DNA from: Paracoccus sp. S-4012
Lineage (GTDB): Bacteria; Pseudomonadota; Alphaproteobacteria; Rhodobacterales; Rhodobacteraceae
DNA length: 64,000 bases
Direction: 5' to 3'
NCBI RefSeq assembly: GCF_009674885.1
Contig: NZ_WKKA01000008.1
Coordinates: 62,001-126,000, forward strand
Below the pieces are notes generated by a model that saw nothing but the letters and a program-made list of their open reading frames with translations, made no database searches and was not told the origin of the DNA. Positions 32,249-52,796 of this stretch are shown here, in pieces. The stretch's first letter is position 1. Every line of letters starts with the position of its first letter. A program made the position numbers and the translations under genes.

Positions 32249-32258
32249 GGAGGCGGGA

Positions 32259-32651: not shown

Positions 32652-32652
32652 G

Positions 32653-33111
32653 ATGGCGGCGCAGGCGAACCTCGGGACCGACATCGCGATCACGCTGATC
32701 GACAGCCGCGCGCTCTCGATCTACCGCGTGACCGAAGCCGAGCGCCGCACCCGCGAGGGCGGCCGCCTGCGCCGCATCGGCGATTTCGGCCTGGTCGAAG
32801 GGCGCGACAATCTCGGCCAGGCGCTGATCCGGCGGCTGCTGACGCCGAAGGGCGAACTCGCGCCGCTGGGCCACCCGTCCTACGGCGCCCGGCTGCATGA
32901 GATCATCGGCGCGCCGAACACCGAGACGACGCGCAATCTCGCCAAGCTCTTCGTGCTGGAGGCGCTGAAGGCCGAGCGGCGGGTGGCCAAGATCATCGCC
33001 GTTGCGGTCACTCCGCATCCCAAGGAGCGCTTCCTGATTCTGATCGCCATCGAGGTGCAGCCGGTCGGCGCGGACGCGGTGCTCGCGCTGTCGTTCGGGC
33101 TGGAACTCTAG
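32653..33111 (+). CDS. gp25-like baseplate wedge protein
   Basis: A 152-residue member of the gp25/GpW baseplate wedge family, which links hub and sheath. Seen: GDFGLVEGRDNLGQALIRRLLTPKGELAPLGHPSYGARL, the hallmark, with the GhPsYG motif, and then helices before a final beta strand LILIAIEVQPVG. The length is close to the family average. It begins one base after the PAAR stop. Confidence 0.88.
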   Translation: MAAQANLGTDIAITLIDSRALSIYRVTEAERRTREGGRLRRIGDFGLVEGRDNLGQALIRRLLTPKGELAPLGHPSYGARLHEIIGAPNTETTRNLAKLFVLEALKAERRVAKIIAVAVTPHPKERFLILIAIEVQPVGADAVLALSFGLEL

Positions 33112-33122
33112 GGGAGGGTGCC

Positions 33123-37148: not shown

Positions 37149-38640
37149 GCTTGCAGACCGCTTCGGCGGCAAGGTCAACGGCGAGCTGATCCGTGCCGCC
37201 GACTGGAACGGGCTGATCGACGGCATCGAGGCGCAGCTTGCCGCGCTTGGCGGAAGGGTGACCGAGGAAGTCGGCGGCCTCGCCACGCGCCTCGCGGCGG
37301 CCGAGGCCACAGCCGCCGACCTCGCCGCGCGCCTCGACCCGCTCGAAGCGCTGAACACCGTTCTGACCGAGCGCCAAAGGCGGCTCGACCTCAGCAGCAC
37401 CCGCGCCGCCTTCGCCGTGGGCGAGCGGGCCGAGATCGTCGCCCGCGTGACCGACCTGCACGGCCAGCCCCTCGACCTGACCGACGCAGGCGCCCGCCCC
37501 TGGGTCGATTTCGTCTGCGTCTGGGGCAGCCTCAAGCCCGCGCCGGGCTTTACCAGCCGCGCGGGGACCGGCGGGCGCTCGGTCACGGTGCAGGTCAACG
37601 ACGCGGGCGAGGCGCGGGTTCTGCTGCGCGAGGAGGCGGGCGAGACCTTCGCCGAGGAGCAGGAGCTCGAGATCGACGCGGTCCTGCAGACCACCGTCGC
37701 GGGCGTCAGCGTGGCGCAGAGCTTCCTCAACGCCAGCACGCCGGGCGCCAGCGAGATCGCGCCGGCCTTCTCGGCCGTGACCGCCGCCTATGAGCGCGCC
37801 GACACCGGCGTCATGCGGAACTATCTCGACGCGGTCTATCTCGAACGCCCGTCCCGCGCCTTCAGCCCGATCACCCCCGCCTTCGTGCTCAACTGGCGCG
37901 ACGAGTTCGCCACCGTCATGGCCTTCGTCAAGCCCGACGACAGCCCCGGCACGGGCGATGCAGCGATGGCGGCGGGTTCGATCCGCGTCACCTTCCGCGA
38001 CTGGGTCTATCCCTGGCTCGTCACCCACTACCTGCCGGTCTCGCCGCCGATCCTCGACCGCTACCGGGCCGAGTTCACGCCGCTGATCCTGCGCGGCTTC
38101 GAGCCTGCCGTGAGCGGAATCTTCGAGACCATCCAGTCGCGCACCCGCGACCGCGGCATCCTCGGCACGCAGCGCGAGATGATCGCCGCGCGCGAGGCGA
38201 TGCGGACGCTGCCGCTGACGACGCGGCCGGCCTATCTCGACAGCGTCGTGGGCGCGGTGAACGGCGGGCTGACGGTGCAGCAGGGCTTGCTGTTCAGCCA
38301 GGCGATGGCGCCGCTGATGGAGGAGAACACCGCGCCCGCCCGCGCCATCGGCATCGGCGCGGCGCGCGGCGAGGCGGCGGCGGGGGCGGTGGCCGAGGCG
38401 ATCCGGGGCGAGACCGAGGCCACGGTGAACGCGGCCGAGGGGCGTCTGCTGGACACCGTGAAGGCCGAGAACCTGCGGCTGAGCAGCGAGCTGCTGAGCG
38501 ATGACGGCCCGGTGCGGCGGGCCGAGAACATCGCGCTGAAGGCGGCGGGCGAGGTCGATACGATCAACGCGCAGCTGGGGCAGAAGGCCGGGCTGGACCT
38601 CGTCGGGCAGCTTCTGAACGTGCGCGGCGGGAACGGCTGA
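37141..38640 (+). CDS. Coiled-coil CIS-associated protein of unknown function
   Basis: A 499-residue protein. It starts with LADRFGGKVNGELIRAADWNGLIDGI, then a coiled coil (about 25-85). A beta-rich Ig-like stretch follows (about 95-190, AFAVGERAEIVARVTDLHGQPLDL). The remainder is helical with a DWVYPWLVTHYLPVSPPIL segment and a final coiled coil. The opening recalls trimeric fibre-attachment segments, so a fibre or whisker-like role is possible. No enzymatic motif and no family that I recognise. The ribosome binding site (gaggaggtgacg) is strong and the start overlaps the previous gene. Confidence 0.6.
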   Translation: MGELADRFGGKVNGELIRAADWNGLIDGIEAQLAALGGRVTEEVGGLATRLAAAEATAADLAARLDPLEALNTVLTERQRRLDLSSTRAAFAVGERAEIVARVTDLHGQPLDLTDAGARPWVDFVCVWGSLKPAPGFTSRAGTGGRSVTVQVNDAGEARVLLREEAGETFAEEQELEIDAVLQTTVAGVSVAQSFLNASTPGASEIAPAFSAVTAAYERADTGVMRNYLDAVYLERPSRAFSPITPAFVLNWRDEFATVMAFVKPDDSPGTGDAAMAAGSIRVTFRDWVYPWLVTHYLPVSPPILDRYRAEFTPLILRGFEPAVSGIFETIQSRTRDRGILGTQREMIAAREAMRTLPLTTRPAYLDSVVGAVNGGLTVQQGLLFSQAMAPLMEENTAPARAIGIGAARGEAAAGAVAEAIRGETEATVNAAEGRLLDTVKAENLRLSSELLSDDGPVRRAENIALKAAGEVDTINAQLGQKAGLDLVGQLLNVRGGNG

Positions 38641-38641
38641 G

Positions 38642-40285
38642 ATGCCGGGGCCGGTCCTCACCCCCGAGGAGGTCGGCCCGCTGGATGCGGCGCGGGTGCT
38701 GACCTTCCTCAACCGCGTCGGCAGCGCCGAGGAGCTGGCCGACACGATCGGCCTCTCGGAAGGCGCGGGCGTCGGCCGGCGCGTGGCGGCGGCCATACTG
38801 GCCCGGCGCGCGGAGGGGCCGCTGGTCTCGCTCGACGCGGTGCTGGCGGTGACGGGGGTGACCCCGGCCCGATTCACCGAGATCGTGACCGCGCTCTCTG
38901 GCGCGCGGCCCGCGCCGGCGGGTGGCACGCTGCGGCTGACGCCCACGAGCGAGGCGCCGTGGCTGGGGCAGGGGGTCGGGATCGTCGGGCAGCTTCTGGA
39001 CGCGTCGGGTCGCGGTGTGCCGAACGTGGCGATCGCCTGCATCGCGAGCGCAGGGTTTCTGTCGGCGCAGGCCGGGATCGAGCGGCAGCAGGGCGCGGCG
39101 GTGAGCCTCGTGACTGGCCCCGGCGGGCTCATCCAGTTCCGGCTCGGTCCGCCGCTCGCCCCGCCGCTCGACCCCGCTTCGGCGGCGGCCTTGCAGGCGG
39201 AGCTGGCGCGGCTGCCGCGGGAGGCCGCGACCCCCGAGGCGGCGCGCGAGGCGCTTGCGGGGCTTGCCGCGCGATACCGGGCCGAGGGGGCGGGGCTGCT
39301 GCGGGCGGCGATGGACCGTCTCGCGCGCAGCTTTCCGGCCGAGGCCGACCGGCCCGAGGCTCCCTGGCCGGTCATGCCGGTGACGCTCATCGCCGTCGCC
39401 TCCGGGGCCGGCGGCCGGGCCGAGCAGGTCACGGTGCTGACGCTGCGCGTCCGCAACTGGCTGGGCGGCTGGCTGCGTTTCCTGCGCGCGGCGGTGGAGG
39501 GCGACGCGCGCCTCGACGCCGCGCTGAAGAACCTCGACCGCGCGGCGCATTCCGGGGCGGATCTCTCGGAGGCGCTGATCCGCGCGACCCAGGCCTTCGC
39601 CGGCCTCGAGCGCGGCGAGATCGGCGCCCGCCTCCGCGATGAAGCGGCCGGCGCACCGATCGCCCGCTATGTCGAGCAGGTCGCCCCGCGCCTCCGGGAC
39701 AGCGCCATCGTCAACACCGTCCGCGCCGCCGGCGCCTCCAGGGCGGCGATCAGCGCCGGAGGCTTTGCGGTGTTCGAGGCGATCCGCGCCACGCAGGACG
39801 TGCAGGACACGATCGAGCCGAAACGCCCCGGCCGCAGCACGGTCGATCCGCGCCTCGACCTGTTCGACCACCGCCTCGGCACTCTCGAGGCGAAGGCGGT
39901 GGACCGCGCCGCGCTCGACGGGCTGCGCGACGAGCTGCTCTCCGGGACCGGCGCGCGGTTCGACCGGATGCAGGGCCGCGTCGATGCGCTCGAGTCGCGG
40001 CCTCAGCCCGACCTCGATGCCTTCGAGGCGCGGCTGACCCGCAGCCTCGACGCGCGCTTTGCCGAGCGGCTGGCGGAGACCGAGACCCGCCTCGGCCGCC
40101 AGGTCGCGGACACCCGGCGCGAGCTTGGCGGCGAGATCACGCAGACCCGGAGCGATCTGGTCACGCGGATCGACGCCAAGGCCGATGCGACGGCGGTGCG
40201 CGGGCTCGAGCGGTCGGTGACGGACCTGCGCACGACCAATGCGGCGCTCTCGGACCGGCTGAACGTCACCCGGCCCGACCGATGA
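38642..40285 (+). CDS. CIS-associated protein with HhH-like N-terminus and C-terminal coiled coil
   Basis: A 547-residue protein of unknown function. Residues about 10-90 resemble a double helix-hairpin-helix like that of ComEA/GspK proteins (VLTFLNRVGSAEELADTIGL, VAAAILARRAEGPLVSLDAVLAVTGVTPARF). A beta-rich domain follows (about 100-165, GQGVGIVGQLLDASGRGVPNVAIAC), then helices, and a long coiled coil at about 420-540. An HhH fold usually contacts DNA or proteins, which is odd within a tail cluster. The start lies one base after the previous stop and the end overlaps the next gene by four bases. Confidence 0.6.
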   Translation: MPGPVLTPEEVGPLDAARVLTFLNRVGSAEELADTIGLSEGAGVGRRVAAAILARRAEGPLVSLDAVLAVTGVTPARFTEIVTALSGARPAPAGGTLRLTPTSEAPWLGQGVGIVGQLLDASGRGVPNVAIACIASAGFLSAQAGIERQQGAAVSLVTGPGGLIQFRLGPPLAPPLDPASAAALQAELARLPREAATPEAAREALAGLAARYRAEGAGLLRAAMDRLARSFPAEADRPEAPWPVMPVTLIAVASGAGGRAEQVTVLTLRVRNWLGGWLRFLRAAVEGDARLDAALKNLDRAAHSGADLSEALIRATQAFAGLERGEIGARLRDEAAGAPIARYVEQVAPRLRDSAIVNTVRAAGASRAAISAGGFAVFEAIRATQDVQDTIEPKRPGRSTVDPRLDLFDHRLGTLEAKAVDRAALDGLRDELLSGTGARFDRMQGRVDALESRPQPDLDAFEARLTRSLDARFAERLAETETRLGRQVADTRRELGGEITQTRSDLVTRIDAKADATAVRGLERSVTDLRTTNAALSDRLNVTRPDR

Positions 40286-41802
40286 GCCGGGTGACGACAG
40301 CGGCGCTCGTCGGACAGCTGGCGGGCGGCCTCGACATCGCGCGGGCGGGGCGGTTCCGCCGGGTCGTGCGGCTGACGCTGCCGACCGGCGGGGCGGATGG
40401 CGCCGTGGTCGCGGCGGCGCCGGTGCTGGACGTGACGTTTCTCGCGCGCGAGGTCGAGGCCACCGCGGCGAGCGCGCCGGAGCCTGCAAGTCTGGCGCCC
40501 GGGGGGGGCGGTCTTGTCCTGACGCTGCCGGTCGCGCGCGAAATTGCGCGGGTGCGGCTGACGGCGCCGCAGCCGGGCGACCAGGTGGCGGCGTTCCGCT
40601 TCGACGGGGCGGCGGTCTCGGACGATCCGGTGGCGGTCGCCGCGCATGGCGGCAGCGGGGCGGCGCTCGAGGTGACCGACCAGGCGCTGATCCTGCGGCG
40701 CCGCAACGCAGGCGATCATGCGCTGAGTGCAGGGGCGATCGCCGGGGTGGTGCTGCGCTATCCGCCGGTCAATCCGCGCCTCGCGCTGATGCTCGTCGGC
40801 GATCCCGCGGGGGAGCAGGGGTTCCCGCCGGCGGCAGGCCCGGGCGGCGTGCCGGTCTTTCCGGGGGTGATCCAGGCCGGGGCGCAGCTGGCCGCGAGGC
40901 TGGACCCGGCACTCGCCCGTCTCGCCGAGGCCGGGCCATTGCCCGAGGCGCTCGCGCTCGACCTGATCCTCGAGGCCGACCAGCCCTGCGCGGCGCGAAT
41001 CGACGCGCTCGACCTCGGGCTGAGGCTCGAGCGCGTCGGCTTCGCGGGTGAAGCTGGCAAGCGGGTGCTGCGGTTCGGCGGGCAGGGGACCCAGGCGGTC
41101 GAACTGGCGCTGCCCCCGGCCGCGGCGGCGGTCGAGGGCCGGATGGGCGTCAGCCTCTCGGCCCCGCCCTCAGCCGGCGTCCCCGCCGTCTCGACCGCCT
41201 CCGGGCCGGCGGCGGGGGCCGACGGCGTGGCCCTCGGCCCGGGCAATCTCGTAGCCGGCCGGATCGATCTCCCGGCGGCGGCGGTGATCGTTGGCGCCGA
41301 GGCCGTGCTGGCCGCCGCCGAGCCGCAGACGCTGATCGCGGCCCGGCTCATGGCCGAGCGGAACGGTCGGCCCGATGTCGTCATTGCCGTGAGCGACGAA
41401 GTGGGCCTCGGCCGCGCCCGTCCCGCGCCGGTCAGCTTCGCCTTTCCTCCGACGGTGGCGCCGGCCGGGCCGCTGTGGCTGGCCGTCGAGGCGCGACGCG
41501 GGGCGGCGGTCGCCATGCTGGGCGGCGGCGGCGCGGTGGTGAAGGGCGGCGCTCTCGTGACGGAGGCGGGGCTCGCCGTCGCGCTGCGCTTCGCCGCGCT
41601 CGCGGGCGAGCCTGAGGCCACCGGCATCGTGCTGCGCCTGAACGGGCTGGCGCTGCCCTTGGATGGCGGCACCGTCGATCTCACCCCGGCGCTCGCCGCG
41701 CTGCCCGAGCCGCACCCGGCCGCCGTCACGCTCAGCGTCCGCGCCGCCGGGCGCGCGGTGGTGACGCTCGACCCGCCGCGCATCCGCTATTCGCTGCCAT
41801 GA
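40282..41802 (+). CDS. Beta-rich CIS-associated protein of unknown function
   Basis: A 506-residue protein that is mostly strand and loop, Gly/Ala/Pro-rich, with no signal peptide or transmembrane segment. Repeated patterns (LDLILEADQPCAARIDALDLGL, ALPPAAAAVEGRMGVSLSAP, VIVGAEAVLAAAEPQ, PLWLAVEARRGAAVAML) suggest several similar beta domains. It is the last structural-looking gene before a protease, so an external fibre or shell protein is possible. I do not recognise a family. Confidence 0.6.
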   Translation: MSRVTTAALVGQLAGGLDIARAGRFRRVVRLTLPTGGADGAVVAAAPVLDVTFLAREVEATAASAPEPASLAPGGGGLVLTLPVAREIARVRLTAPQPGDQVAAFRFDGAAVSDDPVAVAAHGGSGAALEVTDQALILRRRNAGDHALSAGAIAGVVLRYPPVNPRLALMLVGDPAGEQGFPPAAGPGGVPVFPGVIQAGAQLAARLDPALARLAEAGPLPEALALDLILEADQPCAARIDALDLGLRLERVGFAGEAGKRVLRFGGQGTQAVELALPPAAAAVEGRMGVSLSAPPSAGVPAVSTASGPAAGADGVALGPGNLVAGRIDLPAAAVIVGAEAVLAAAEPQTLIAARLMAERNGRPDVVIAVSDEVGLGRARPAPVSFAFPPTVAPAGPLWLAVEARRGAAVAMLGGGGAVVKGGALVTEAGLAVALRFAALAGEPEATGIVLRLNGLALPLDGGTVDLTPALAALPEPHPAAVTLSVRAAGRAVVTLDPPRIRYSLP

Positions 41803-41814: not shown

Positions 41815-43014
41815 ATGAGCGACGCAACGACCGCCCGCCTGCGCGACTACCTCGCCAAGGTACTGCCCGGCGGCGGGCTGGAGGAACTGGCCGATACCGG
41901 CGCGGCGGCCGAATCCATGCTGGAGGCCGCCTGGATCGACGCCACCGCCCCCGCGGCGGCCCCGCCGGCCCGGCCCGAGGCAATCCGCAGCGCCGCCGAG
42001 AAGCTGGCGCAGGGGGCCGAGCTCGACCGCGAGGAGCAGTTCGTCACCGAGGCCATCATCATCCCCGACAAGCGCCCGGCGGTGCTGGTGCAGGACGGCG
42101 ACTACCGGGTCGCCCATGCGCTCTGGACGCATTACGATCAGGACCCCGGCATCCGGCAGCGGCTGCGGACCGCCATCGCCTCCATCGGCCGGGTCGAGTT
42201 GCCCGACCACCCCTCGCTGCCCTATGGCGGCACCGGATTCGTGGTCGGGCCGGACCTGCTGATGACCAACCGCCATGTCGCGGAGATCTTCGCCTCGGGG
42301 CTCGGGCTGCGCGACCTGCGTTTCCGGCCGGGGCTCTCGGCCGGGGTGGATTTCCTGCGCGAGCATGAGCGGGACGGCTCGATCGGGGTCAAGGTCCGCG
42401 AGGTGGCGATGATCCATCCACATTGGGACATGGCGCTGCTGCGGGTCGAGGGGCTCGGCAACGGCCAGCCGCCGCTGGAACTGGCGCTCGAGGAGCCGGA
42501 GGCGCTCGAGGGCGAGGAGATCGCGGTGATCGGCTATCCGGCGTTCGACCCGCGCAACGACGCGGGCGTTCAGGGCATGGTCTTCGGCGGCATCTACAAC
42601 GTGAAGCGGTTGCAGCCGGGGGTGGTCGGCCCGCGCCGCCGGACGGCGAGCTTCGGGCGCAGCGTCGATGCGGCGACGCATGACAGCTCGACGCTGGGCG
42701 GCAACTCCGGCTCGGCGGTGATTTCGGCCCGGACCGGGCGGGTGGTCGCGCTGCATTTCGGGGGGCGCTACCTCGACGCCAATTTCGGCGTGCCCACGGG
42801 CGAGTTGGCGCTTGATGCGCGCGTGGTGGACGCGGGGGTGCGTTTTGCCGGCAAGCCGGCACCGCGCCCGGATGCCTTCGCCGATGCGTGGCGTGACGTG
42901 TCGGGGCAGGAGGCGGCGGTGGCGATCCGGCCGGAGGCGCGGGACGGGAGCGTCACCGTGACGGTGCCGGTGACGATCACGCTCAGTCTCGGGGGGCCGG
43001 TTCAGGGCGCCTGA
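41815..43014 (+). CDS. Trypsin-like serine protease without signal peptide
   Basis: A 399-residue protein. The N-terminal 125 residues are helical (RLRDYLAKVLPGGGLEELAD). The S1-family domain shows a full triad: His154 (TNRHVAEIF), Asp205 (HPHWDMALLRV) and Ser298 (LGGNSGSAV). No signal peptide or transmembrane helix is visible, so it acts in the cytoplasm or is carried by the tail. It closes the plus-strand CIS unit and overlaps the 3' end of the opposite-strand NUC1-like gene by 32 bases. The TNRHVA and GGNSGS motifs are shared with the protease encoded at 47897-49108, so the two are homologous. Possible roles are CIS maturation, a payload, or a sensor-effector of a conflict module. Confidence 0.85.
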   Translation: MSDATTARLRDYLAKVLPGGGLEELADTGAAAESMLEAAWIDATAPAAAPPARPEAIRSAAEKLAQGAELDREEQFVTEAIIIPDKRPAVLVQDGDYRVAHALWTHYDQDPGIRQRLRTAIASIGRVELPDHPSLPYGGTGFVVGPDLLMTNRHVAEIFASGLGLRDLRFRPGLSAGVDFLREHERDGSIGVKVREVAMIHPHWDMALLRVEGLGNGQPPLELALEEPEALEGEEIAVIGYPAFDPRNDAGVQGMVFGGIYNVKRLQPGVVGPRRRTASFGRSVDAATHDSSTLGGNSGSAVISARTGRVVALHFGGRYLDANFGVPTGELALDARVVDAGVRFAGKPAPRPDAFADAWRDVSGQEAAVAIRPEARDGSVTVTVPVTITLSLGGPVQGA

Positions 43015-45496
43015 CCTCAACGCCGGCTGCCGCCCCCGCGGGCGGGCTGATCCAGACCTCGAGGATGCCGTTGCGGATGATCTCCATGCCCACGGCAGTC
43101 ACCTCCGAGTGCCCGGCGGCGCGCAGGTCGGCGGCCAGCAGTCGGGCCGCGGCCGCGTCCGCCTCACTGCCCTCGTGATAGCGGACCTGGTTTAGCCCCT
43201 GCGCCGCGTCGATCTGCTCCTCGCGCGGCATGTCCCAGCCGAGCGCCTGCAGCTCCTTCCTGAGCACGACCGCCTGATCGTGGGTGTAGCCGGCGAATTG
43301 CAGGTAGACGGTCTGGTCCGGTCCATCCTCGAGGCCGAGCCCGTCGCGCAGGGCGGCGAGCAGCTGCTGCGCCTGCGGGCCGAGCACCGCATCGGCGGCG
43401 GCGAGCCGCCGCGCGCGGGCGGTCAGCGGCAGCCATGCCTCCCGCATCCAGTTCTCCGCGGGAACCTGCACCAGCACGAAGAGCAGGTTCACCCGCGTCT
43501 GGGGCGAGAGATAGGCAAGCCGCCCGCCTTCGCTTGCGGCCAGCAATGCCTCGACCACCTGCAGCTTGTCGTCCTCCTTCGCCTCGGGGTCCCGCAGCAG
43601 ATCGGCGAGGTCCTGAACCGCGGCCCGGCGGGTGGCCTCGTCGGCGGCCTCGAGTTCGGGCACCCGCGCGGCGAGGCGGGCGCCATGGCTGCCGGCGGCG
43701 ATCAGCGCCTCCGGGAAGCCGAGGCCCGTCAGCAACGCGATCTCCTCGACGCTGGTGCGATAGGCCTCCGGGTCCGGCGCGGAGGCCGGGGTGTTCGGCA
43801 CGAGGAAGGCGTCCACCGTCGGCAATCCCTCCGGTCCGGCGGAGACGGCGATCTTCCAGTAGGCCTCGGGCAGGCCGCCACGCTCCCCGAAGACCGGGCC
43901 GGAGAGGATCGTCACGCGCGAGGCGGCGGGATTGTGGTGCAGGCGCACCCAGTCCTCGATCGCCGGCCACGACTGCTGGTTCACGGCCGCGAACTGCGGC
44001 ACGAGGTTCGGATAGTGGCTGGTCATCTGCGCGACGAAGGCCGCCGCCTCGGCGGTGTCCGAAGGAAGCGCCGGCCCCCAGGAAATGTCGGCCCGGCCCA
44101 CGAGGCGGCCGCGTTCGATCCCGCGCTCATCGAAGATGCCTGGGTCGGGCTGCTGAGCCGGGTCGAGGCGGGGGTCGGGCCGGAAAACGTCGCCGGCGCG
44201 GGGCAGGGCGCGGCTCTGCAGCCGGTCGAGATTGGCCGCCGACAGGATCGCCATCCGCCGGCCGGTGTCGAGGATGATGCTGTAGTAGAAATAGGGCAGC
44301 GGCTCGCCGCCGTTCCACGCCATGGCGGCCTGCGCCTCGGTCACTGCGGGCAGGGGCAGGTCCATGCCGAGGAAGCCGGGATCGTAGCCGGGGAAGGTCA
44401 GCGCCGGCTCGGCGGCAGGCGTTGCAAGGTCGGCGGTTTGAACGTGGGGTTCGCCTTCGTCGACGCCGATGGTGGCCTCCGGCTGCGCGCCCGATGCGCC
44501 CGCGGGCATGGCCTCCGTTGCCCTCGGCAGGGCGTAGGGAAGCAGCGGGTCCGGGGTGTCGGCGGGCGTGAGGCGGGTGATGAGGATGGACCGCAGTCTG
44601 GCATCGGGGATGCTCGTGGGGTCCAGCAGCCCCGAGTGCACCTGGCGGGCGAGCACGTCGAGGGCGGCGTCGAGTTCGACGTTGCGGCTGTTCTGCCCGC
44701 GCCATTGCTGGGTCGCCTGCCTTGCGCTCTCCTCGGCGCGCAACCGCTCGGTGTTGGCCCTGGTGGCCTGCATCCTCGCCTGCGCCTCCGCCGTCCGGGC
44801 GGCCAGGCGATCGGCTTCCGCCGCCAGCCGAGCCGCCGCCTCCCGTTCCGATGCCCCTTCCGCTGCCTGCCGCGCCACTTCCGCCTCTTGCCGGGCCAGG
44901 CTCGTCTGCCAGTTCATCCAGCCCAGCAAGGCGATGACCGCGACGAGGACGGCCAGCGCCACGTTCTTGATCCGCTGCCGTCGCCGCAGCGTCCGGCCCT
45001 GCGCCCCGCGGCTGGCGGCGATCAGGGCGGCGATGTCGGGGTCGCGGGCGAAGCGTTCGGCCTCATCGAGGGCCTCTCCGCCGAGCAGATAGCCTGCCGC
45101 GCCGCTGTCGCGCCATTGGCGCGCGAGGGCGCTGAGGCGGATGTATTGCCGCGCCTCCTCGGGGTTGCGGATCGCGCCCTCGGGCTCCGGTTTGGGCGCG
45201 GCGGCGGCATAGGGCGCCAGCTGCACCGGCCGCACCTCCACCCGCTCGCGGCGAGACGCGGCGATGAGGTCGGCCGACCAGTAGTCAAGGATGCGCTGCA
45301 CCGCACGGCGGTCCTCGGGGTCGGCGAGAAGCGCGCCGGTGGCGCCCGCCCGGCCGAGGAACGCCGCGATCTCGCCGGCGGGGATGGTCTGCAGCGGCGC
45401 CGTGTCGCTGCCGGCCTGCCGCTCCAGCATCTGCTGGTGCAGGCGGCGCAGGACATCGAGGGACGCGAACGGCTCGCCGGCCGGGGGAGTGCTCAT
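42983..45496 (-). CDS. Membrane-anchored NUC1-fold protein with altered catalytic motif
   Basis: An 837-residue protein. Residues 1-170 are helical and end in a LIAASRGAQGR segment like linkers of STAND-type conflict proteins. One transmembrane helix lies at about 177-193, followed by a coiled coil to about 265. Residues about 365-560 match the DNA/RNA non-specific endonuclease (NUC1) fold: AILSAANLD, ERGRLVGRADISWG, and NLVPQ…N506 with W510. The catalytic DRGH motif reads ERGR, Arg464 replacing His. The C-terminus (about 725-810) resembles a small LytR-C/SPOR-like domain. The protein may be a catalytically dead scaffold. ATG 45496 overlaps the upstream gene by four bases in the four-gene minus-strand operon. 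Confidence 0.75.
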   Translation of the reverse strand: MSTPPAGEPFASLDVLRRLHQQMLERQAGSDTAPLQTIPAGEIAAFLGRAGATGALLADPEDRRAVQRILDYWSADLIAASRRERVEVRPVQLAPYAAAAPKPEPEGAIRNPEEARQYIRLSALARQWRDSGAAGYLLGGEALDEAERFARDPDIAALIAASRGAQGRTLRRRQRIKNVALAVLVAVIALLGWMNWQTSLARQEAEVARQAAEGASEREAAARLAAEADRLAARTAEAQARMQATRANTERLRAEESARQATQQWRGQNSRNVELDAALDVLARQVHSGLLDPTSIPDARLRSILITRLTPADTPDPLLPYALPRATEAMPAGASGAQPEATIGVDEGEPHVQTADLATPAAEPALTFPGYDPGFLGMDLPLPAVTEAQAAMAWNGGEPLPYFYYSIILDTGRRMAILSAANLDRLQSRALPRAGDVFRPDPRLDPAQQPDPGIFDERGIERGRLVGRADISWGPALPSDTAEAAAFVAQMTSHYPNLVPQFAAVNQQSWPAIEDWVRLHHNPAASRVTILSGPVFGERGGLPEAYWKIAVSAGPEGLPTVDAFLVPNTPASAPDPEAYRTSVEEIALLTGLGFPEALIAAGSHGARLAARVPELEAADEATRRAAVQDLADLLRDPEAKEDDKLQVVEALLAASEGGRLAYLSPQTRVNLLFVLVQVPAENWMREAWLPLTARARRLAAADAVLGPQAQQLLAALRDGLGLEDGPDQTVYLQFAGYTHDQAVVLRKELQALGWDMPREEQIDAAQGLNQVRYHEGSEADAAAARLLAADLRAAGHSEVTAVGMEIIRNGILEVWISPPAGAAAGVEVRRPEPAPRD

Positions 45497-46779
45497 GCGC
45501 CAAGCTCCGACAGGATGCGGTTCAGCGGCTCGCCGATCTTCACCAGCTCGCTGCAATCCGCCTTGAGACGCGAATCCACGATGAGGAAATGATACTGCGC
45601 GTCGCCGCGGAACACCGCAAAGGCGTCGAGGAAGCGGGCGTCGGCGACCTCGGCCGCGAGGCGGTCGTCCACGTCGCGGACGTAACCCTGCAAGTCCTCG
45701 GCCCACTCGGCGCCGGCGTCGCGGGCGGCAAGCTCCAGCACCTTGGCCTTCAGCTCCAGCCAGTCGGCCGCGAATTCCTCGATCAGCCGCGGCGAGCCCA
45801 GTTCGACCAGCCGGTCGAGGTCGGCGATGACGTTGTCGGCGTCCTGCCAGTCCTTGTGCTCGACCACCCTTGCCCGGATCGCCGGGATGATGAGCCGCAG
45901 CGCCTGCAACGCGCCCTGCGTCGGGCCGCCGACCACGGGCACGATCACGTCCTGAAGCGCGCCGGCGAGCTTCTCCAGCGGCAGCTCGGTCGCCATCGCG
46001 AAGATCTGCGTGTTCAGCCGCGGCGGTGTGTTGCGCATGATCCGCGCGATGCGGTTCAGCGCGCGGCGGGCGGCATCGGGGTCGCGGGCCTGGATGGCGT
46101 CGTGGAACTCGTCCCCCGCCGCCTCCAGTTCGCCGATCCACAGAAGCTCGGTGCGGCGCACCACGGGCGTGTCGGGCAGCTTCAGCACTGCCTGGTTGGC
46201 GAACAGGCAGGCGTTGCGGAGCTGGTTGCGGAACACCCGCAACTCGGCCGCCTGCGCCGGGTCGCCCCCGAGGTTGCGGGCCGCCTCGCGCAGAGTGGCG
46301 AACTGCTTGGCCTGCAACTGGTGCAGGCATTCGTGCAGCGCCTTGTAGGCGTCGAGGCTGTCGATGGTCGAGGAAATCAGCAGCAGCTCCGTCTTCGAGC
46401 TGGTGAGCGCGCCCTTGACCGCCGGATCCTCCAGCTTGGCCCGCACCGCGTCGAGGCCCTGCACGAGCGAACTGACATTCGCCTCGGTGCTGCGCGGCAC
46501 GTTCTGCGCCCCCGGGGCCGCCTCGGCTACGAGCGCCGCGAACTCGGCGTCATCGGGCCGCTGGGCCAGCATCTCGCCCAGCACCGCCAGTTCCATGCTC
46601 CGTGCGCTGATGCGGTCCACTAGCTCCGAGACGGTCGCGGGGTCGGGCTTGTCGCGCGGCACGAGGTCGTAGAGCCGCTCGCCCGAGGTCTTGAGCAGGA
46701 TCAGGTTCAGCTCGGCCAGCGTGAAGATGCGCGCGATCTTGCGGCTGAGCGGCTCGATCAGAGCGGCGGCGATGGTCAT
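45493..46779 (-). CDS. EAD1-like adaptor protein with helical C-terminal region
   Basis: A 428-residue protein. The first 85 or so residues (LIEPLSRKIARIFTLAELNL, LYDLVPRDKPD, then LAVLGEMLAQRPDDAEFAALV) form a small helical domain of the type described as effector-associated domain 1 (EAD1), a homotypic adaptor in bacterial conflict systems. The same domain is present at the N-terminus of the protease encoded immediately upstream, so the two products are predicted to bind each other. The remaining 340 residues are helical with no motif that I recognise. It overlaps both neighbours by four bases (ATGA), a tightly coupled operon. Confidence 0.7.
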   Translation of the reverse strand: MTIAAALIEPLSRKIARIFTLAELNLILLKTSGERLYDLVPRDKPDPATVSELVDRISARSMELAVLGEMLAQRPDDAEFAALVAEAAPGAQNVPRSTEANVSSLVQGLDAVRAKLEDPAVKGALTSSKTELLLISSTIDSLDAYKALHECLHQLQAKQFATLREAARNLGGDPAQAAELRVFRNQLRNACLFANQAVLKLPDTPVVRRTELLWIGELEAAGDEFHDAIQARDPDAARRALNRIARIMRNTPPRLNTQIFAMATELPLEKLAGALQDVIVPVVGGPTQGALQALRLIIPAIRARVVEHKDWQDADNVIADLDRLVELGSPRLIEEFAADWLELKAKVLELAARDAGAEWAEDLQGYVRDVDDRLAAEVADARFLDAFAVFRGDAQYHFLIVDSRLKADCSELVKIGEPLNRILSELGA

Positions 46780-47897
46780 GGCCCGAGCAGCCCGCTTTGC
46801 CCCCCGGCCTCGATCCGCGCGCGGACGAGGTGCAGCGGGACGCCCTGGTTGAACTTCGGCGCCTGCCATGCCGGGTCGCCATAGTGGTGCAGCACCACCG
46901 GGTCCCAGTCCATGCTGAAGCCGGGCGAGCCGGAGGAGCCGCTGTCGGTGTTGGTGCGGTAGCGCAGGCGGGTGCCGTTGGCGTTCGGCCCGATCACCGC
47001 CTGCGTGTCCATCGCCAGCTTCATCGGCGCGCCGTCCGGGTGCTGGACGATCAGCAGCGGGTCGTCGGGGGCCAGCGCGGGCGCGGCGGCGGGGAGGGGG
47101 ATCCAGCGGCGGGCGACGCCCTCGATCTCGTGCTCGCCCGCGGCTTCCCCGAGGTGCAGCAGCGCGAAGTCTAGCTCGTCGGGCGTGGGAGGCGGTTCGG
47201 CCGGGTGGTCGGTCAGTTCGGCCGGGCTGAACGGGCTGTGGCAGGCGAGGGCCTTGTCGCCCAGCGGCAGCACCACGCCCGGCTGCCGCGCACCGTCCTC
47301 GCGCATGAGATAGTCGAAGCGGCAGCGCAGGTCGGCCACCCGCCCGGCGGTGGCGGCCTTCTCCACCACATGCCAGTTGGTCAGCACCGCCTGAGGCCCG
47401 ACGAGGAAGCCGGTTCCGGCGGCGCGGGTGCCGATCTCGATCCGGCAGACGCGGTTGCGGATGCGGAGCAGCTTGTCCACCCACACCATCAGGTCGAGCT
47501 TCTGGAGATTCGGGCGGACATTGCGTTGCAGGCCCGGCGCGAAGCCGTTGGGCGGCGCGTCGGCCACCGCCGCCCCGGCGACCTGCAGCGACAGCGGCAT
47601 CTCCGCTTGCGGCGGCGAGGCGGCGGCTTCCGGGCTGGCGCGGGCGACGAGGTCACGGAACTCGGGATCGTTCGGGCGCCGCGCCAGCATCTCGGAGAGC
47701 AGCTTCGCCTCGATGTTGCTGGCGCTCACCGCGTCGAGCAGCGCCGAGAACGTCGCCCGGTCGGGCAGGCCGCGGGGCACGACCTCGTAGAGCATGTCGC
47801 CCGTCACCTTGCGCAGCATCCAGTCGCCTTCCTGCAGCGTGAAGATGCGCGCGCTCTTCCGGCTGAGGGGTTCGATGAGCTCGACCGGGATCGCCAT
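46776..47897 (-). CDS. EAD1-like domain fused to a trypsin-like protease
   Basis: A 373-residue protein. Residues 1-88 form the EAD1-like adaptor (ELIEPLSRKSARIFTLQEGD, MLYEVVPRGLPDRATF, LSEMLARRPNDPEFRDLV). A Pro/Ala linker leads to an S1-like protease domain with His176 (LTNWHVVEK), Asp243 (DELDFALLHL) and Ser322 (SGSSGSPGF). There is no signal peptide. EAD-protease fusions are known from predicted bacterial conflict systems, where the adaptor recruits the protease to a partner carrying the same domain, here the product of the next gene. ATG 47897 was chosen because the EAD begins there; the longer open frame upstream lies in the preceding gene. The start overlaps the upstream stop by one base. 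Confidence 0.82.
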   Translation of the reverse strand: MAIPVELIEPLSRKSARIFTLQEGDWMLRKVTGDMLYEVVPRGLPDRATFSALLDAVSASNIEAKLLSEMLARRPNDPEFRDLVARASPEAAASPPQAEMPLSLQVAGAAVADAPPNGFAPGLQRNVRPNLQKLDLMVWVDKLLRIRNRVCRIEIGTRAAGTGFLVGPQAVLTNWHVVEKAATAGRVADLRCRFDYLMREDGARQPGVVLPLGDKALACHSPFSPAELTDHPAEPPPTPDELDFALLHLGEAAGEHEIEGVARRWIPLPAAAPALAPDDPLLIVQHPDGAPMKLAMDTQAVIGPNANGTRLRYRTNTDSGSSGSPGFSMDWDPVVLHHYGDPAWQAPKFNQGVPLHLVRARIEAGGQSGLLGP

Positions 47898-49108
47898 CAG
47901 GGGAACTCCACCAGGTCGATGCCCTCGGCCCGGCAGAGGTCGCCGAGGCTCGCGTGGCGCAACCCGCGCAGGCCCTCCTCGTCGAGGATCGCCGAGAGCG
48001 GATGCGCCCAGTTCGCCCGCGCCGCGCCCCAACTGCCGCCGTAGTGGATCCCGGTCACGGCCGGGCAACTGTCGAGCCCCATGACCAGCGAGCCCGAATT
48101 GCCGCCGAGGGTCGTGGCGTCGTGCAGCATCGTCCGGCCCGCGGGCGCAGGCATCACCGCGCCGGGCGCGAGGCGCTTGAAGCCCCAGAGGCGGCCAAAG
48201 AGGAGGCGCAGCACCCGATCGGTCTCGGTCACGTCGCCGAGGATGTCCTCGCGCGCGGGGGCGGCGGGATAGCCGGCGAGGAAGATTTCGGTGCCCGGGC
48301 GGGTGAGGGCGCCGCCGCCGCCGATGCAGAGCGGCGCGAGGTGGCGCTCGCTGCCGGAGGGCGCGGCGCGGAAGATCGCGAGGTCGAGGACGGCATGGTC
48401 GATCCCGCGCGCGGGCACCGGGCGGGCGCCGCAGAAGACCAGCTCGGTCAGCGGTCGAGGGTCGACGGAGTCGCGGCCGCCGAACTCATGGCCGAAGTCG
48501 ATCCGCGGCCCCCGGGCGGGATCGATCCGCGGCCCGCCGGGGGCGCCGAAGTCCACGAAGATCTGCGCGACGTGGCGGTTGGTGGCGACGAGGTCGGGCG
48601 CGATCAGCCAGCCGGTGCCCGCGAACGGGGCGGCCGGATGGGTGATGTCGATGCGTCCGACGGCGCGGATGACGGCGCGCAGGGTATCCTCGAGCGCCAC
48701 GTCGGTCAGCCGGCCGGTCCATTCGCCGGGCGGGCTCGACCCCGGCACGATGGCGTCGTCGCGGATCAGGAACACCGGGCGCGAGCCGTCCGTCTCGACG
48801 ATGACCTCGAGCCCCGCCTCGAGCCGCGCGCGGGGCGCCGCCGTGCGGTCGCGCGACCCCTCGATCAGCTTCAGCCCCTCGCGCCCGTCGGCCAGCACCC
48901 GTTCGGCGAGCGCGGTCAGGTCGGCGTCACCGCCGAGTTCGTCGCGGATGAAGCGCAGCAGGAACTCGCGCGAGCGTGCCCAGCGTTCGGCCACTGCGGC
49001 CTCGGGGCTGCCGCCGCCGATGGATTCGAGCCGGCCGTGCCCGCTCGACATGCGCGGCAGGAACTTCCTCGTCAGGGCCTCGACTGCCACCGGATCGTGC
49101 CTGTGCAT
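47897..49108 (-). CDS. Trypsin-like serine protease, first gene of the minus-strand operon
   Basis: A 403-residue protein with a helical N-terminus (about 1-100, including SPEAAVAERWARSREFLLRF) and an S1-type domain with His179 (ATNRHVAQIF), Asp242 (HAVLDLAIFR) and Ser338 (LGGNSGSLVM). No signal peptide. It is homologous to the protease encoded at 41815-43014, sharing TNRHVA, an RLAPG/RLQPG loop, GGNSGS and a following HFGG/HYGGS segment. It has a good ribosome binding site (gggggag) and is transcribed divergently from the lysozyme-like gene. It is the third protease within 7 kb. Targets are unknown. Confidence 0.83.
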   Translation of the reverse strand: MHRHDPVAVEALTRKFLPRMSSGHGRLESIGGGSPEAAVAERWARSREFLLRFIRDELGGDADLTALAERVLADGREGLKLIEGSRDRTAAPRARLEAGLEVIVETDGSRPVFLIRDDAIVPGSSPPGEWTGRLTDVALEDTLRAVIRAVGRIDITHPAAPFAGTGWLIAPDLVATNRHVAQIFVDFGAPGGPRIDPARGPRIDFGHEFGGRDSVDPRPLTELVFCGARPVPARGIDHAVLDLAIFRAAPSGSERHLAPLCIGGGGALTRPGTEIFLAGYPAAPAREDILGDVTETDRVLRLLFGRLWGFKRLAPGAVMPAPAGRTMLHDATTLGGNSGSLVMGLDSCPAVTGIHYGGSWGAARANWAHPLSAILDEEGLRGLRHASLGDLCRAEGIDLVEFP

Positions 49109-49371
49109 GGCCCGTCTCCCCCTGGGAGAACAGAATCTGAAGAAATCGGTAATTGCCCGAAACGGGCGCCTTCCAGTGAAATCCGCCGGCGCTTCCAGGC
49201 CGGTGCGGTCAGCAAGGATATTCTACTTCAGCGCGAGGCACTTGAACAGTCAGCGGGATAGCACATCGCGATTGACGCAATCCTGGCCGAGGCGCATCAT
49301 CGCCACACGGATAACGGCAGTTTCGTCCCTCGTTTCAGCGCTCATCCCGGGCGGCTGTGGAGGCTATCTGG
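49109..49371. promoter_or_regulatory. Divergent control region between the protease operon and the lysozyme-like gene
   Basis: About 260 bases without a gene. A possible plus-strand promoter is ttgacg (49272-49277), a 17-base spacer and catcat (49295-49300), about 70 bases before ATG 49372; the -10 match is weak. A short hairpin, gcccg-aaa-cgggc at 49155-49167, lies near the minus-strand start. Both transcription units must start in this region, so shared control is plausible. Confidence 0.35.
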
Positions 49372-51324
49372 ATGAACGATCCGCTGCATTCCTCCGCTAT
49401 CGAGGCCCCGAACGCCGTCGATCTGGCCGAAATGCTGGGCTGGCGCGAGGCAGCCGAGGAATGGGGTGGCGACGAGGAGGCGACGCCGCTCGACATCCCG
49501 TGGCAGGACGCGATCTCGACCCGCGCCTATGACTTCATCGTCACCTGGGAGACGGGCGGCCGCGCCTATTACGAGCAGGTGATCCGCGCCCGCCCGGTCT
49601 GGCCCGCCTTCGCCTCCGGCATCACCATCGGCTGCGGCTACGACCTCGGCTACCACACGCGGGCCGAGTTCGAGGCCGACTGGGGCACCCGCCTCCCGCG
49701 CGCGGCGATCGAGCGGCTCTCGCGCGTCATCGGCTTTCGCACCGACGACCCGGGCCGCGCCGCCAAGGTCACGCGCGCGAAGGCCCTCGTGCGGTCGCTG
49801 TCGGACATCGTGGTGCCGTGGGACGTGGCGATCGCGCAGTTCGACGCCGCGAAGATGCCGAAGCTGGTGGGACAGCTCTACGGCGCGCTCGACAATCTCG
49901 ACCGGCTGCATCCGCATGCCCGCGGGGCGCTGCTGAGCCTCGTGTTCAACCGCGGCGGGGGCGGCTTCACGTCCACGAAGGACCGCTTCCGCGAGATGCG
50001 CGATACCCGGCGGATGATGGCGGATGGCGATTTCGATGCCATCCCCGGCTGCTTGCGCGCCATGATCCGCATCTGGGGCGCGGAGTCGAGCCTCGCCAAG
50101 CGGCGCAGGCAGGAGGCGGATCTGTTCGAGGCCGGGCTGGCCGAGATGGCGCTGACCGAGGGGCTGGCGGCCCTCGGCGCCCTGGAGACCCTCGAAGCCC
50201 CCGCGTCGCCCGCAGCCGAAGACCACGAGGACGTGGCCGAGCAGACCGACGACCACCTCGAGGCCCTCGACGCGCCGGAGCTGGAATCCGTGACCGAGGC
50301 CCCCGGCCAGTCGCTTGCCGATGTCCGCTGGAACCCCAACGATGACGAGCAGCCCGACTACCGCCACCTGCCGAAGCTGCCGCAGGGGACCGAGTTCGAC
50401 CTGACCGCCGAGGATCTCGAGGCGTTGATCCGGGCCAATGCCTTCCAGGTGCTGCCCGGCCGGGTGCTCTTCGCGCTGCGCGGCGCGCGGCTTTCGGGGG
50501 CCGAGAAGCGCGAGGACGTGGCCGCGATCACCCTCGTGGACCAGCGGCCCGACCACCACGACTTCCGCTGCGTGATCGGCGTCCTGGACCGTGGCAGCGG
50601 CCGCCTCTGGGCGTTCCGCGCCTCGACCGTGCCGGAGGCGAAGGCGCTCGTGAACGGCGTCGCCAAGGCGCGGAGCGGCCAGTTCGAGGGCAACGTGCTG
50701 CCGACGGGGTGCTACACCTACACGGTGGGCACCCACCGCGCCGGGACCTCGGGGGAGATCCGCGGCGTGCTGCGGCTCTCGAAGTCCCGCGACGGGGCGT
50801 CGCGCGTGATCGCGCTGAGGACGCTGGACGACGTGGTCTATGACCGGCGCGACTTCTGGCACGACTGCGCGCCCGCCGACAATATCCATCCCGGCCGGCG
50901 GCGGCAGGGGTTTTCGTCCCTCGGCTGCATGACGCTGCCGGGCGACTACGACCGCGGGCGGCGGCTGCATACCGGCCTCTGGGCCGACCTGCGCGAGGCC
51001 CTCGGCATGGGGCGGACCTTTGCCGCCTCGGACGATGGCCAGCAGTTCAGCGCCATGCTGCTGACCGGTCTCGATGCGGCGCTTGCCTCGCGGCAGCGGA
51101 CCTCGGGCGAGGCCGCGTCGCTGCAACGGCTGCGCTTCGGCTCGCAGGGGGACGCCGTGGACCGGCTGCAGCGGCAACTTGGCCTCGCCCCGGACGCCAG
51201 CCAGCTTGTCGGGCCGGTCACACGCGCGGCGCTCATCCAGCATCAGCAACGCAAGCTCGGCTGGGCCGACGGCATCCTCTCGCCCGAGGCCGAGGCCGAG
51301 CTGGGACTGACAGTGTTCAACTGA
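49372..51324 (+). CDS. Lysozyme-like / L,D-transpeptidase-like / peptidoglycan-binding protein
   Basis: A 650-residue multidomain protein without a signal peptide. Residues about 50-250 resemble phage/pesticin-type lysozymes: TWETGGRAYYE with probable catalytic Glu60, then SGITIGCGYDLGY. An acidic linker (280-330) follows. Residues about 395-525 resemble an L,D-transpeptidase: LWAFRAS, GCYTYTVGTHRAGTSG, His506 (NIHPG) and Cys519 in FSSLGCMTLPG. Residues about 585-640 are a peptidoglycan-binding domain 1 (LQRLRFGSQGDAVDRLQRQLGL). It should act on cell wall, so delivery by the CIS or release after host lysis is likely. ATG 49372 has a ggagg ribosome binding site; GTG 49357 is the alternative. 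Confidence 0.78.
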   Translation: MNDPLHSSAIEAPNAVDLAEMLGWREAAEEWGGDEEATPLDIPWQDAISTRAYDFIVTWETGGRAYYEQVIRARPVWPAFASGITIGCGYDLGYHTRAEFEADWGTRLPRAAIERLSRVIGFRTDDPGRAAKVTRAKALVRSLSDIVVPWDVAIAQFDAAKMPKLVGQLYGALDNLDRLHPHARGALLSLVFNRGGGGFTSTKDRFREMRDTRRMMADGDFDAIPGCLRAMIRIWGAESSLAKRRRQEADLFEAGLAEMALTEGLAALGALETLEAPASPAAEDHEDVAEQTDDHLEALDAPELESVTEAPGQSLADVRWNPNDDEQPDYRHLPKLPQGTEFDLTAEDLEALIRANAFQVLPGRVLFALRGARLSGAEKREDVAAITLVDQRPDHHDFRCVIGVLDRGSGRLWAFRASTVPEAKALVNGVAKARSGQFEGNVLPTGCYTYTVGTHRAGTSGEIRGVLRLSKSRDGASRVIALRTLDDVVYDRRDFWHDCAPADNIHPGRRRQGFSSLGCMTLPGDYDRGRRLHTGLWADLREALGMGRTFAASDDGQQFSAMLLTGLDAALASRQRTSGEAASLQRLRFGSQGDAVDRLQRQLGLAPDASQLVGPVTRAALIQHQQRKLGWADGILSPEAEAELGLTVFN

Positions 51325-51335: not shown

Positions 51336-52796
51336 ATGCAGAAGATCGACCGCGCGACGCTTGAATCGATGCTGATGGACCCGGAGGTGCCCGACAGCGC
51401 CATCCGCCCCTTCCTGCGCCTCGACCCGCTCGACAGCCAGTCCTTCCGCCCGAGCGTCATCGCCAACCCGGCGCTCGTGGCGTTCGACGAGACCGAGTCG
51501 GCGATGGCCCTCGCCTCGCTGAACGGCGTCGCCCGCTGGCGGCGGCAGCGGCGCTATGCGGCCAAGATCCGCGGCTGGACGGGCCTGAAGGTCGTGGCCG
51601 AGGGCGACTCGTGGTTCCAGTATCCGTTCCTGATCGACGACGTGATCGACCACCTGTTCGACGCATGGGCGATCTACTGCGTCGGCGCCGCCGGCGACCT
51701 CTTGCAGGACATGGTCCGGCAGGACGAGGTGACGGCCGCGGTGCTGTCCGAGAAGCCCGACCTGCTGCTGCTCAGCGGCGGCGGCAACGACCTGCTGGGC
51801 GGCGGCCAGCTCGCGCGCTACCTCAAGCCGCCGCGCCCCGGCATGGCGCCCGAGGATCACATCTCGGACGAGTTCGACCAACTCCTCGCCCGCATCCTCG
51901 CGATCTACGCCGATCTGGTCGAAAGGGCGCTGACGGCGGGGGCGAAGCGCGTGGTCTGCCACGGCTACGACTACGCCATCCCGAACGGCGGCCCGTGGCT
52001 CGGCCGGCCGATGCTGAAGCTCGGCATCAGCGACCGCCGGCTGCAGCGCGACATCATCCGGGTGCTGATCGACAGGCTGCATGACGGGCTAGAGTCGATG
52101 GCCGGCAACTTCGGCGGCCGGGTCGCAGCCGCCGACTGCCGCGGCCGCACGCCCGACGACGCGTGGTATGACGAGCTGCACCCGACCAGCAGCGGCTTCG
52201 TCCCGGCGGCGCGGATGATCCGCGAAACGGCCGAGGGCGGCAGCCTCGAGGCGATTGCCATGGAAATGCCCGCGCCGCCCGAGTCGCGCCCGCTGCCGGT
52301 CGCCGACGAGGAGGCCGTCCTTGGTGTGATGGCGATGGACGAGGAGACGCTGCTCGCCGAGATGGGCCGTCGTCAGGCGCTTCTGGAACTGACCCCGGAC
52401 ATCGCGGAGAGCATGACCCTCGCCATGCCGCCCGAAGGGACGGAGTCGGTGCAGGGCGCCTTCCTCGACCTCGGCCGCCGCGTGGCCGAGCGGCTCAACC
52501 GCGAACTCTACCATCTCCTCTGCGGCGACGATGACACGGCGAAAGTCGAGCGCGAGAAGCTGAGGCAGACCCTGAAGCTCTCCGACGCCGCCCTGATCGG
52601 CGGCATCGCGACGACCCTCATGGCGATCGGCACGCCGCCCTTCCTCGCGCCGCTGGCCGCGACGGTGATCGTCCGCTCGGGGATCAAGCCGGCATGGGAG
52701 GAGACCTGCCGCTTCTGGGGCGAACGCTTCGGCCCCCTGGACCCCGCGCCACTGCCGGCAACGCCGCCCGGCGGAACGGCACAGCCCGGGGCCTGA
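51336..52796 (+). CDS. SGNH/GDSL-family hydrolase
   Basis: A 486-residue protein with an SGNH esterase/lipase core at about 80-300. Ser92 is in VVAEGDSWFQYP (block I), Gly/Asn151 in LLSGGGNDLLGGG (block III), and Asp279 and His282 in YDELHPTSSGF (block V). No signal peptide is seen. The C-terminal 190 residues are helical, with a hydrophobic stretch near 420-450 (LIGGIATTLMAIGTPPFLAPLAATVIV) that could insert into membrane. Substrates of this family include lipids and acetylated polysaccharides. It lies 11 bases after the lysozyme-like gene and is probably co-transcribed, consistent with a second payload or envelope-active enzyme. Confidence 0.82.
   Translation: MQKIDRATLESMLMDPEVPDSAIRPFLRLDPLDSQSFRPSVIANPALVAFDETESAMALASLNGVARWRRQRRYAAKIRGWTGLKVVAEGDSWFQYPFLIDDVIDHLFDAWAIYCVGAAGDLLQDMVRQDEVTAAVLSEKPDLLLLSGGGNDLLGGGQLARYLKPPRPGMAPEDHISDEFDQLLARILAIYADLVERALTAGAKRVVCHGYDYAIPNGGPWLGRPMLKLGISDRRLQRDIIRVLIDRLHDGLESMAGNFGGRVAAADCRGRTPDDAWYDELHPTSSGFVPAARMIRETAEGGSLEAIAMEMPAPPESRPLPVADEEAVLGVMAMDEETLLAEMGRRQALLELTPDIAESMTLAMPPEGTESVQGAFLDLGRRVAERLNRELYHLLCGDDDTAKVEREKLRQTLKLSDAALIGGIATTLMAIGTPPFLAPLAATVIVRSGIKPAWEETCRFWGERFGPLDPAPLPATPPGGTAQPGA

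What the first reader, a model, noticed from the sequence alone, without database searches (positions are those of the whole stretch)
41815..49108. Protease/EAD1-like module coupled to the injection system
Three trypsin-like proteases with intact triads and no signal peptides lie within 7.3 kb. One carries an EAD1-like adaptor that matches the N-terminus of the next gene product. Together with a membrane-anchored NUC1-fold protein they form a four-gene overlapping operon facing the CIS. EAD-protease pairs are described for bacterial conflict systems. Linking such a module to a CIS suggests a proteolytic signalling or triggering circuit that I do not know from described systems.
Basis: partly seen in the sequence, partly recalled or inferred. 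Interest (0 to 1): 0.9.

Follow-up and report, generated by a model that had tools for sequence, protein, structure and literature searches.

The report
Immune-type protease module beside injection system
A set of protease genes of a kind predicted to serve bacterial immunity and self-destruction sits directly against genes for a phage-tail-like injection machine, and the same pairing occurs in another genus with a different machine, which suggests that such proteases may control when the machine is released or fired.

Summary
Protease A (41815-43014, +) follows the last conserved CIS gene by 12 bp. A four-gene overlapping minus-strand operon runs towards it: P (trypsin), B (EAD1-like + trypsin), C (EAD1-like + helical bundle), D (transmembrane, NUC1 fold). 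The three proteases keep their triad motifs. B and C share the N-terminal domain; its EAD1 identity rests mainly on relatives of B. D's nuclease motif is degenerate (ERGR for DRGH) and D is the genome's only Endonuclease_NS hit: probably a pseudo-nuclease.

The module is not unknown: it matches the predicted alphaproteobacterial 'NucA-trypsin' conflict system (Kaur 2020, System 3). New is the recurring CIS link. Among 394 family genomes surveyed C was found in two, both with a sheath gene 22-24 kb away; the CIS types differ, and a sister species keeps the second arrangement. A Paracoccus plasmid has a CIS with two other trypsins. The link is facultative: Cereibacter azotoformans and a Bradyrhizobium plasmid carry the module with no CIS found nearby; several CIS lack proteases.

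Most likely reading: an immune-type protease switch annexed to a CIS, controlling lysis/release or firing, as LypABC does for gene transfer agents. Function is inferred.

The parts
19544..41802 (+). Contractile injection system gene row (sheath 20663, tube 21756, hub 30495, spike about 31602, PAAR 32259, gp25-like 32653, baseplate J 33123, to 40282-41802)
   Evidence: Pfam/PHROG hits, some below cut-off; colinear relatives of 14 genes in G672 from 19544 to 40282
41815..43014 (+). A: trypsin-like protease, 399 aa, 12 bp after the last conserved CIS gene; its relative in L003 is fused to a NUC1 domain, and 12 of 31 plasmid records with a match name an endonuclease there
   Evidence: PF13365 70.1 bits; spacing; L003; plasmids
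42983..45496 (-). D: helical N-terminus, one TM (176-194), coiled coil, degenerate NUC1 fold, C-terminal alpha/beta part; 837 aa
45493..46779 (-). C: EAD1-like N-terminal domain + all-helical bundle, 428 aa
46776..47897 (-). B: EAD1-like domain + trypsin-like protease, 373 aa
47897..49108 (-). P: trypsin-like protease, 403 aa, related to A (32%); matches PADLOC model PDLC03010 'nacht' (89 bits)
49357..51324 (+). Muramidase-like protein with C-terminal peptidoglycan-binding-like part, 655 aa; 71% identical relative beside P-B-C-D in L004
   Evidence: no Pfam hit
51336..52796 (+). GDSL-like hydrolase (32.1 bits, cut-off 32.9), 486 aa; 59% identical relative beside the module in L004

Best explanation
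A 'NucA-trypsin/EAD1' conflict-type module has been joined to a CIS island. Shown: gene content, packing, domains, recurrence with two different CIS types. Inferred: the EAD1-like domains of B and C bring protease B onto the helical scaffold C; D, which spans the inner membrane with its NUC1-like and C-terminal domains in the periplasm, ties this complex to the envelope; a trigger starts a protease cascade (P, B, A); its outcome is lysis or envelope opening of the producer cell (with the muramidase and GDSL hydrolase as possible executors), which frees or fires the CIS. As NUC1 catalysis appears lost, the output is proteolysis and lysis, not DNA cleavage.
For: A follows the CIS row by 12 bp and overlaps D's 3' end by 32 bp. 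The same kind of module lies in one island with a different CIS in G697, and every part searched is kept in sister species G812. Rough chance for one independent C locus to lie within 25 kb of a sheath: about 0.2% (61/394 x 50 kb/3.7 Mb). A third case: Paracoccus sp. MC1862 plasmid, a CIS with two trypsin genes, one with a GH19-like part. Precedent: in Caulobacter LypABC, trypsin-type peptidases are needed for the lysis that releases GTAs, LypC being trypsin + endonuclease with dispensable nuclease residues (section read). D is the only PF01223 hit of its genome and lacks the catalytic His.
Against: No expression, interaction or phenotype data. The module occurs with no CIS found nearby in L004 and L016, and CIS occur with no such protease in the pieces read (G672, G495, G638, G716; Rhodovulum and Deinococcus by annotation). 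No ATPase or recognised sensor was found in the operon, while LypABC has an NLR ATPase. The muramidase and GDSL proteins show no hydrophobic N-terminus in a crude scan. A was not compared with LypC by sequence. Only one independent EAD1-CIS lineage besides the window was found.
Confidence: 0.45

Rival explanations
1. Neighbours only: the NucA-trypsin module is a separate anti-phage or abortive system that shares an accessory-gene site with the CIS; there is no functional link.
For: B-C-D and trypsin-NUC1 genes occur with no CIS found nearby; P and A match PADLOC model PDLC03010 'nacht' (89 and 46 bits); the window-type CIS in G672 is not followed by the module.
Against: A sits 12 bp behind a CIS gene and overlaps D; the islands in G697 and G812 show CIS and module side by side with few other genes; association with two CIS types; trypsins beside a third CIS.
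Confidence: 0.27
2. Payload: the proteases, muramidase and GDSL hydrolase are effectors that the CIS carries into other cells.
For: A lies at the end of the CIS row; no hydrophobic N-terminus in A, B or P; peptidoglycan-hydrolase-like and protease parts recur beside CIS; 46 proteins (2%) of predicted eCIS-associated toxins are annotated as proteases or peptidases in one study (passage seen).
Against: B and C share an adaptor domain and D is a membrane protein, which fits a resident complex better than cargo; trypsins beside the G697 CIS have hydrophobic N-termini, and those of MC1862 look so by eye; the same genes occur with no CIS found nearby.
Confidence: 0.2
3. Maturation: the proteases process CIS structural or fibre proteins during assembly, with no role in lysis.
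For: A is adjacent to the CIS row.
Against: The same CIS type in G672 is not followed by A, and 21 of 25 sheath loci read showed no such protease in the pieces at hand.
Confidence: 0.08

Closest known systems
NucA-trypsin system ('System 3', Kaur et al. 2020, PMC7159879; a prediction from sequence)
   Same: NucA domain + several trypsins, TM segment, EAD1 on one trypsin and on another protein of the operon, alphaproteobacterial
   Different: D's nuclease motif is degenerate and no other Endonuclease_NS was found in the genome; linked to a CIS, which that paper's main text does not mention ('injection' and 'phage tail' 0 hits)
LypABC, CARD-NLR-like system controlling GTA release (PMC13236601; abstract, sections 9 and 13, passages seen)
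   Same: Trypsin-type peptidases, one with an N-terminal helical adaptor, a trypsin + endonuclease protein with dispensable nuclease residues; tied to a domesticated phage element
   Different: No NLR ATPase found here; EAD1-like instead of CARD-like; CIS instead of GTA
Nuclease-protease pairs of Hachiman/AVAST (PMC12799240; abstract and passages seen)
   Same: Trypsin-like protease paired with a nuclease and moved between unrelated systems
   Different: There an MBL-fold pro-nuclease; here a NUC1 fold, degenerate in D
Cytoplasmic Streptomyces CIS with membrane protein CisA (PMC12237407; start of abstract seen in the listing)
   Same: CIS tied to producer cell death and a membrane protein
   Different: No protease/EAD1 module named in what was seen

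Membership tests
NucA-trypsin system (System 3) | NucA (Endonuclease_NS) domain and trypsin-like peptidase as core | tested here: met
   D 70.5 bits; A, B, P Trypsin_2 over cut-off
NucA-trypsin system (System 3) | TM segment and several trypsin copies in the operon | tested here: met
NucA-trypsin system (System 3) | One trypsin with EAD1 and another EAD1 protein in the operon (a subset of these systems) | tested here: met
   Through relatives: G697's B passes PF19955. For C by homology to B, weak direct match
NucA-trypsin system (System 3) | Catalytically competent NucA (implied by the proposed deployment of the nuclease) | tested here: not met
   ERGR for DRGH in D; only PF01223 hit of the genome. 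Hence filed as a variant
EAD1 (PF19955) | Score over the gathering cut-off | tested here: inconclusive
   No hit for B or C of the window at E<=0.1; 50% identical B of G697 25.4 vs 24.2
CARD-NLR / LypABC | NLR-type ATPase in the operon | tested here: not met
   No ATPase family in A, P, B, C, D at E<=0.1
CARD-NLR / LypABC | Trypsin with N-terminal adaptor plus trypsin-endonuclease protein | tested here: inconclusive
   B has an EAD1-like domain, not compared with CARDs; A lacks the nuclease, which is fused to its relative in L003; LypC itself was not aligned
Contractile injection system | Sheath, tube, hub, spike, PAAR, gp25-like, baseplate J | tested here: met
   over cut-off: sheath C-terminal domain, spike (Phage_base_V), PAAR, J; below or without cut-off: hub (25.0 vs 30.1), gp25-like (22.9 vs 32.9), tube (PHROG E 0.002)
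Afp/PVC-type eCIS | AAA+ ATPase (Afp15/Pvc15) in the cluster | tested here: not met
   No AAA family in the 17 CIS-side ORFs scanned from 19544 to 41802
Signal circuit | EAD1-EAD1 interaction of B and C | not testable with these tools
   Homology only

The most novel reading that the evidence does not exclude
Immune-type, EAD1-organised protease cascades have been annexed more than once by unrelated contractile injection systems and act as their release or firing switch, with a membrane-spanning pseudo-nuclease as envelope anchor or sensor: a class of CIS control that parallels immune control of gene transfer agents.
Probability: 0.38. Interest if true: 0.85.

Novelty: new variant of a known kind. 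Interest (0 to 1): 0.62.

Why it matters
How CIS leave the producer cell or are fired is, as far as I know, open in many lineages. If an immune-type protease module does it, the locus joins three fields (bacterial apoptosis-like immunity, domesticated phage particles, protease-gated lysis) and is testable with simple deletions. It would be a further case, beside GTA/LypABC, of an immune-type module serving a domesticated phage element, and it offers a natural example of a NUC1 fold kept without its catalytic motif.

Tried and rejected

Led nowhere: viral contigs with C, J and B (none); C against plasmids (none at 1e-5, although a 26% relative exists in L016, so the negative is weak); window J against plasmids (one distant archaeal hit). 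The class survey with B found one further genome, G319, with trypsin-part matches. G464 (E 9e-4, three stops inside) was dropped from the count of C genomes. One search listed only its best trypsin matches, so it was not used for counts. Only 4-5 candidates per genome were scored in most rows, so absences there are not firm.

Selection: one search listed 78 sheath rows; one search kept 70 (less the window, G697 and second sheaths of one cluster). I fetched flanks of 18 of these 70 (16 genomes), plus G812 and 4 of the 9 same-genus genomes with a sheath: 23 loci, 25 with the window and G697. I chose mainly those with CIS-sized frames; the choice was mine and not random, and several had only one 20-kb piece, so a protease further off would be missed. 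Fisher values (4 of 8 against 0 of 17: 0.006; 0.017 with G812 merged) are post hoc and not used as evidence.

Full report
What is there. Five protease-module genes lie at 41815-49108. Protease A (+) starts 12 bp after the last gene of the CIS row. On the minus strand P, B, C and D overlap by 1-4 bp and run towards A; the 3' ends of A and D overlap by 32 bp. Pfam gives Trypsin_2 for A, B and P and Endonuclease_NS for D; C has no family. The triad motifs are present in A, B and P. Two further genes, a muramidase-like protein (49357) and a GDSL hydrolase (51336), stand divergent to P; relatives of both stand there in Cereibacter (Luteovulum) azotoformans L004 at 71% and 59%, so I count them with the module. 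The next gene, CopC/CopD-like, is no part of it. Third-position GC is alike in CIS and module genes (about 0.89-0.95, the spike set aside as out of frame) and lower in the four genes measured to the right (0.71-0.81); RNase E on the left has 0.91, so composition does not settle their history.

The adaptor. The first 108 residues of B and C are 52% identical. Neither passes Pfam EAD1. The B relative in genome G697, 50% identical, does (25.4 vs 24.2 bits), and 2 of the 120 proteins listed for B carry PF19955. hhalign of B's domain against two Nostoc EAD1 proteins named by NCBI gave 61%, E 8e-5; C's gave 0.7%. Against the N-termini of a Paracoccus plasmid pair, one of them named EAD1, B gave 1.0% and C 0.2%. 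With Pfam-positive B relatives in the reference, which is partly circular, both exceed 99%, while four control segments stay below 1% (all). 'EAD1-like' is right for B and follows for C through B.

Known kind. Kaur et al. 2020 (section 32 read; passages) describe System 3: NucA plus trypsins, often fused, several copies, TM segments, EAD1 on one trypsin and on other proteins, mostly alphaproteobacteria, proposed to be a protease cascade that deploys the nuclease. The window's module fits, except for the degenerate nuclease. B is common (1178 proteins at E<=1e-20); C and D had 17 and 9 relatives among the candidates scored.

CIS link. C was found in 1 of 61 genomes of the relatives search (the window's own), 1 of 385 class genomes (again its own) and 2 of 394 family genomes, the window's and G697 (one weak broken hit dropped). 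In the same 394, 61 have a sheath C-terminal domain; both C genomes are among them. In G697 the order is D-C-B-(Amidase_2-Trypsin-NUC1), then on the other strand a trypsin with GH19-like and peptidoglycan-binding-like parts (below cut-off), a second trypsin and three more genes, then the CIS (J, gp25, PAAR, hub, tube, sheath), between genes that look chromosomal by eye. In sister species G812 every G697 part searched was found in the same order, while three other species of the genus have no C. The two CIS are 22-41% identical in sheath, spike and gp25, and no other CIS part matched by BLAST at E<=0.05 apart from a short chance-like hit. Of 61 sheath genomes, 10 have an Endonuclease_NS; only in the window genome and G697 does one lie within 25 kb of a sheath on the same contig; G537, in 680 contigs, cannot be judged.

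Third case and counter-cases. G020, same genus as the window, has a G697-type CIS followed by two trypsins, with no C or NUC1 hit. Its contig length and gene coordinates equal those of the Paracoccus sp. MC1862 plasmid NZ_CP067227.1, so the window's genus is probably Paracoccus (inference). Of 25 sheath loci read, trypsins of this kind were found beside 4 (the window, G697, G812, G020). All 4 are among the 8 whose tube gene matches one of the two CIS types; in the other 4 of these (G495, G638, G716, G672) none was found in the pieces fetched, nor in the remaining 17. G672 carries the window's CIS at 43-84% identity in 14 genes, from 19544 to 40282, and ends there: A and the module are an addition in the window's lineage or a loss in G672. 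Rhodovulum (two) and Deinococcus plasmid CIS show no annotated protease in the stretches read. Modules with no CIS found: L004 (no sheath on chromosome 1 by three searches; other replicons not searched) and L016, a Bradyrhizobium plasmid with B (52%), a 26% C and a D N-terminus that ends near an IS element (annotation from 40 to 150 kb of 184 kb read, and that gene table is incomplete; the plasmid is not among the J hits). L003 and L005 contigs are too short to tell; in L003, B-C-D is followed by a convergent A fused to a second NUC1 domain, which ties A to this system.

Mechanism. Shown: packing, domains, recurrence. Inferred: EAD1-like contact of B with C, envelope link by D, cascade of P, B and A, and an outcome at the level of lysis, release or firing. 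The strongest support is the Caulobacter precedent: LypABC is needed for GTA-mediated lysis; the peptidase of LypC, a trypsin-endonuclease protein, is essential and its nuclease residues are dispensable (abstract, sections 9 and 13 read). There, too, the system is patchy (complete in 4 of 11 GTA-bearing Caulobacter species). PADLOC model 'nacht' (PDLC03010) matches P and A over their protease part, in line with an immune origin. Rivals are a neighbouring defence system and payload; neither is excluded.

Print check. Searches for EAD/trypsin/CIS terms listed, in titles and abstract starts, no paper that joins an EAD1 or NucA-trypsin module with a CIS; all but the last listed only part of the papers found (20 of 50, 25 of 68, 10 of 29, 15 of 363, 10 of 205, 7 of 7). 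The eCIS toxin survey PMC8213781 has no 'trypsin' or 'protease' in its main text (passages seen). The library holds open-licence papers only and supplements were not read.

Noticed in passing
L013:2712-5318 (G697): One 868-aa protein joins Amidase_2, Trypsin_2 and a NUC1 domain with DRGH, between CIS and EAD1 module.
   Followed up: partly
L112 (Paracoccus sp. MC1862 plasmid, NZ_CP067227.1): Small CIS with two trypsin genes whose N-termini look hydrophobic, one carrying a GH19-like part.
   Followed up: partly
L016, L023 (Bradyrhizobium plasmid pBb1S5b): Protease-rich stretch: caspase-family, M12, S8 and trypsin genes (one 1788 aa) beside B and a C relative; a D-like N-terminus ends next to an IS256 element.
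   Followed up: partly
window 49357-51324: Muramidase-like protein with a peptidoglycan-binding-like end and a motif that looks like an L,D-transpeptidase site (recalled); no Pfam hit.
   Followed up: partly
window 27634-30498 and 24228-27629: Large CIS genes of unclear role, one with a weak M23 match near its C-terminus; both have relatives in G672 (54-56%).
   Followed up: no
window 34788-37148: CIS-side protein with propeller-like repeats (Reg_prop), relative in G672.
   Followed up: no
L017, L019, L020: Relatives of B in other set-ups: trypsin next to an EAD1 protein and an ATPase (Paracoccus plasmid), EAD1 proteins with MoxR and VWA proteins (Nostoc plasmid), a trypsin-AAA neighbourhood (Caulobacter plasmid).
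   Followed up: partly
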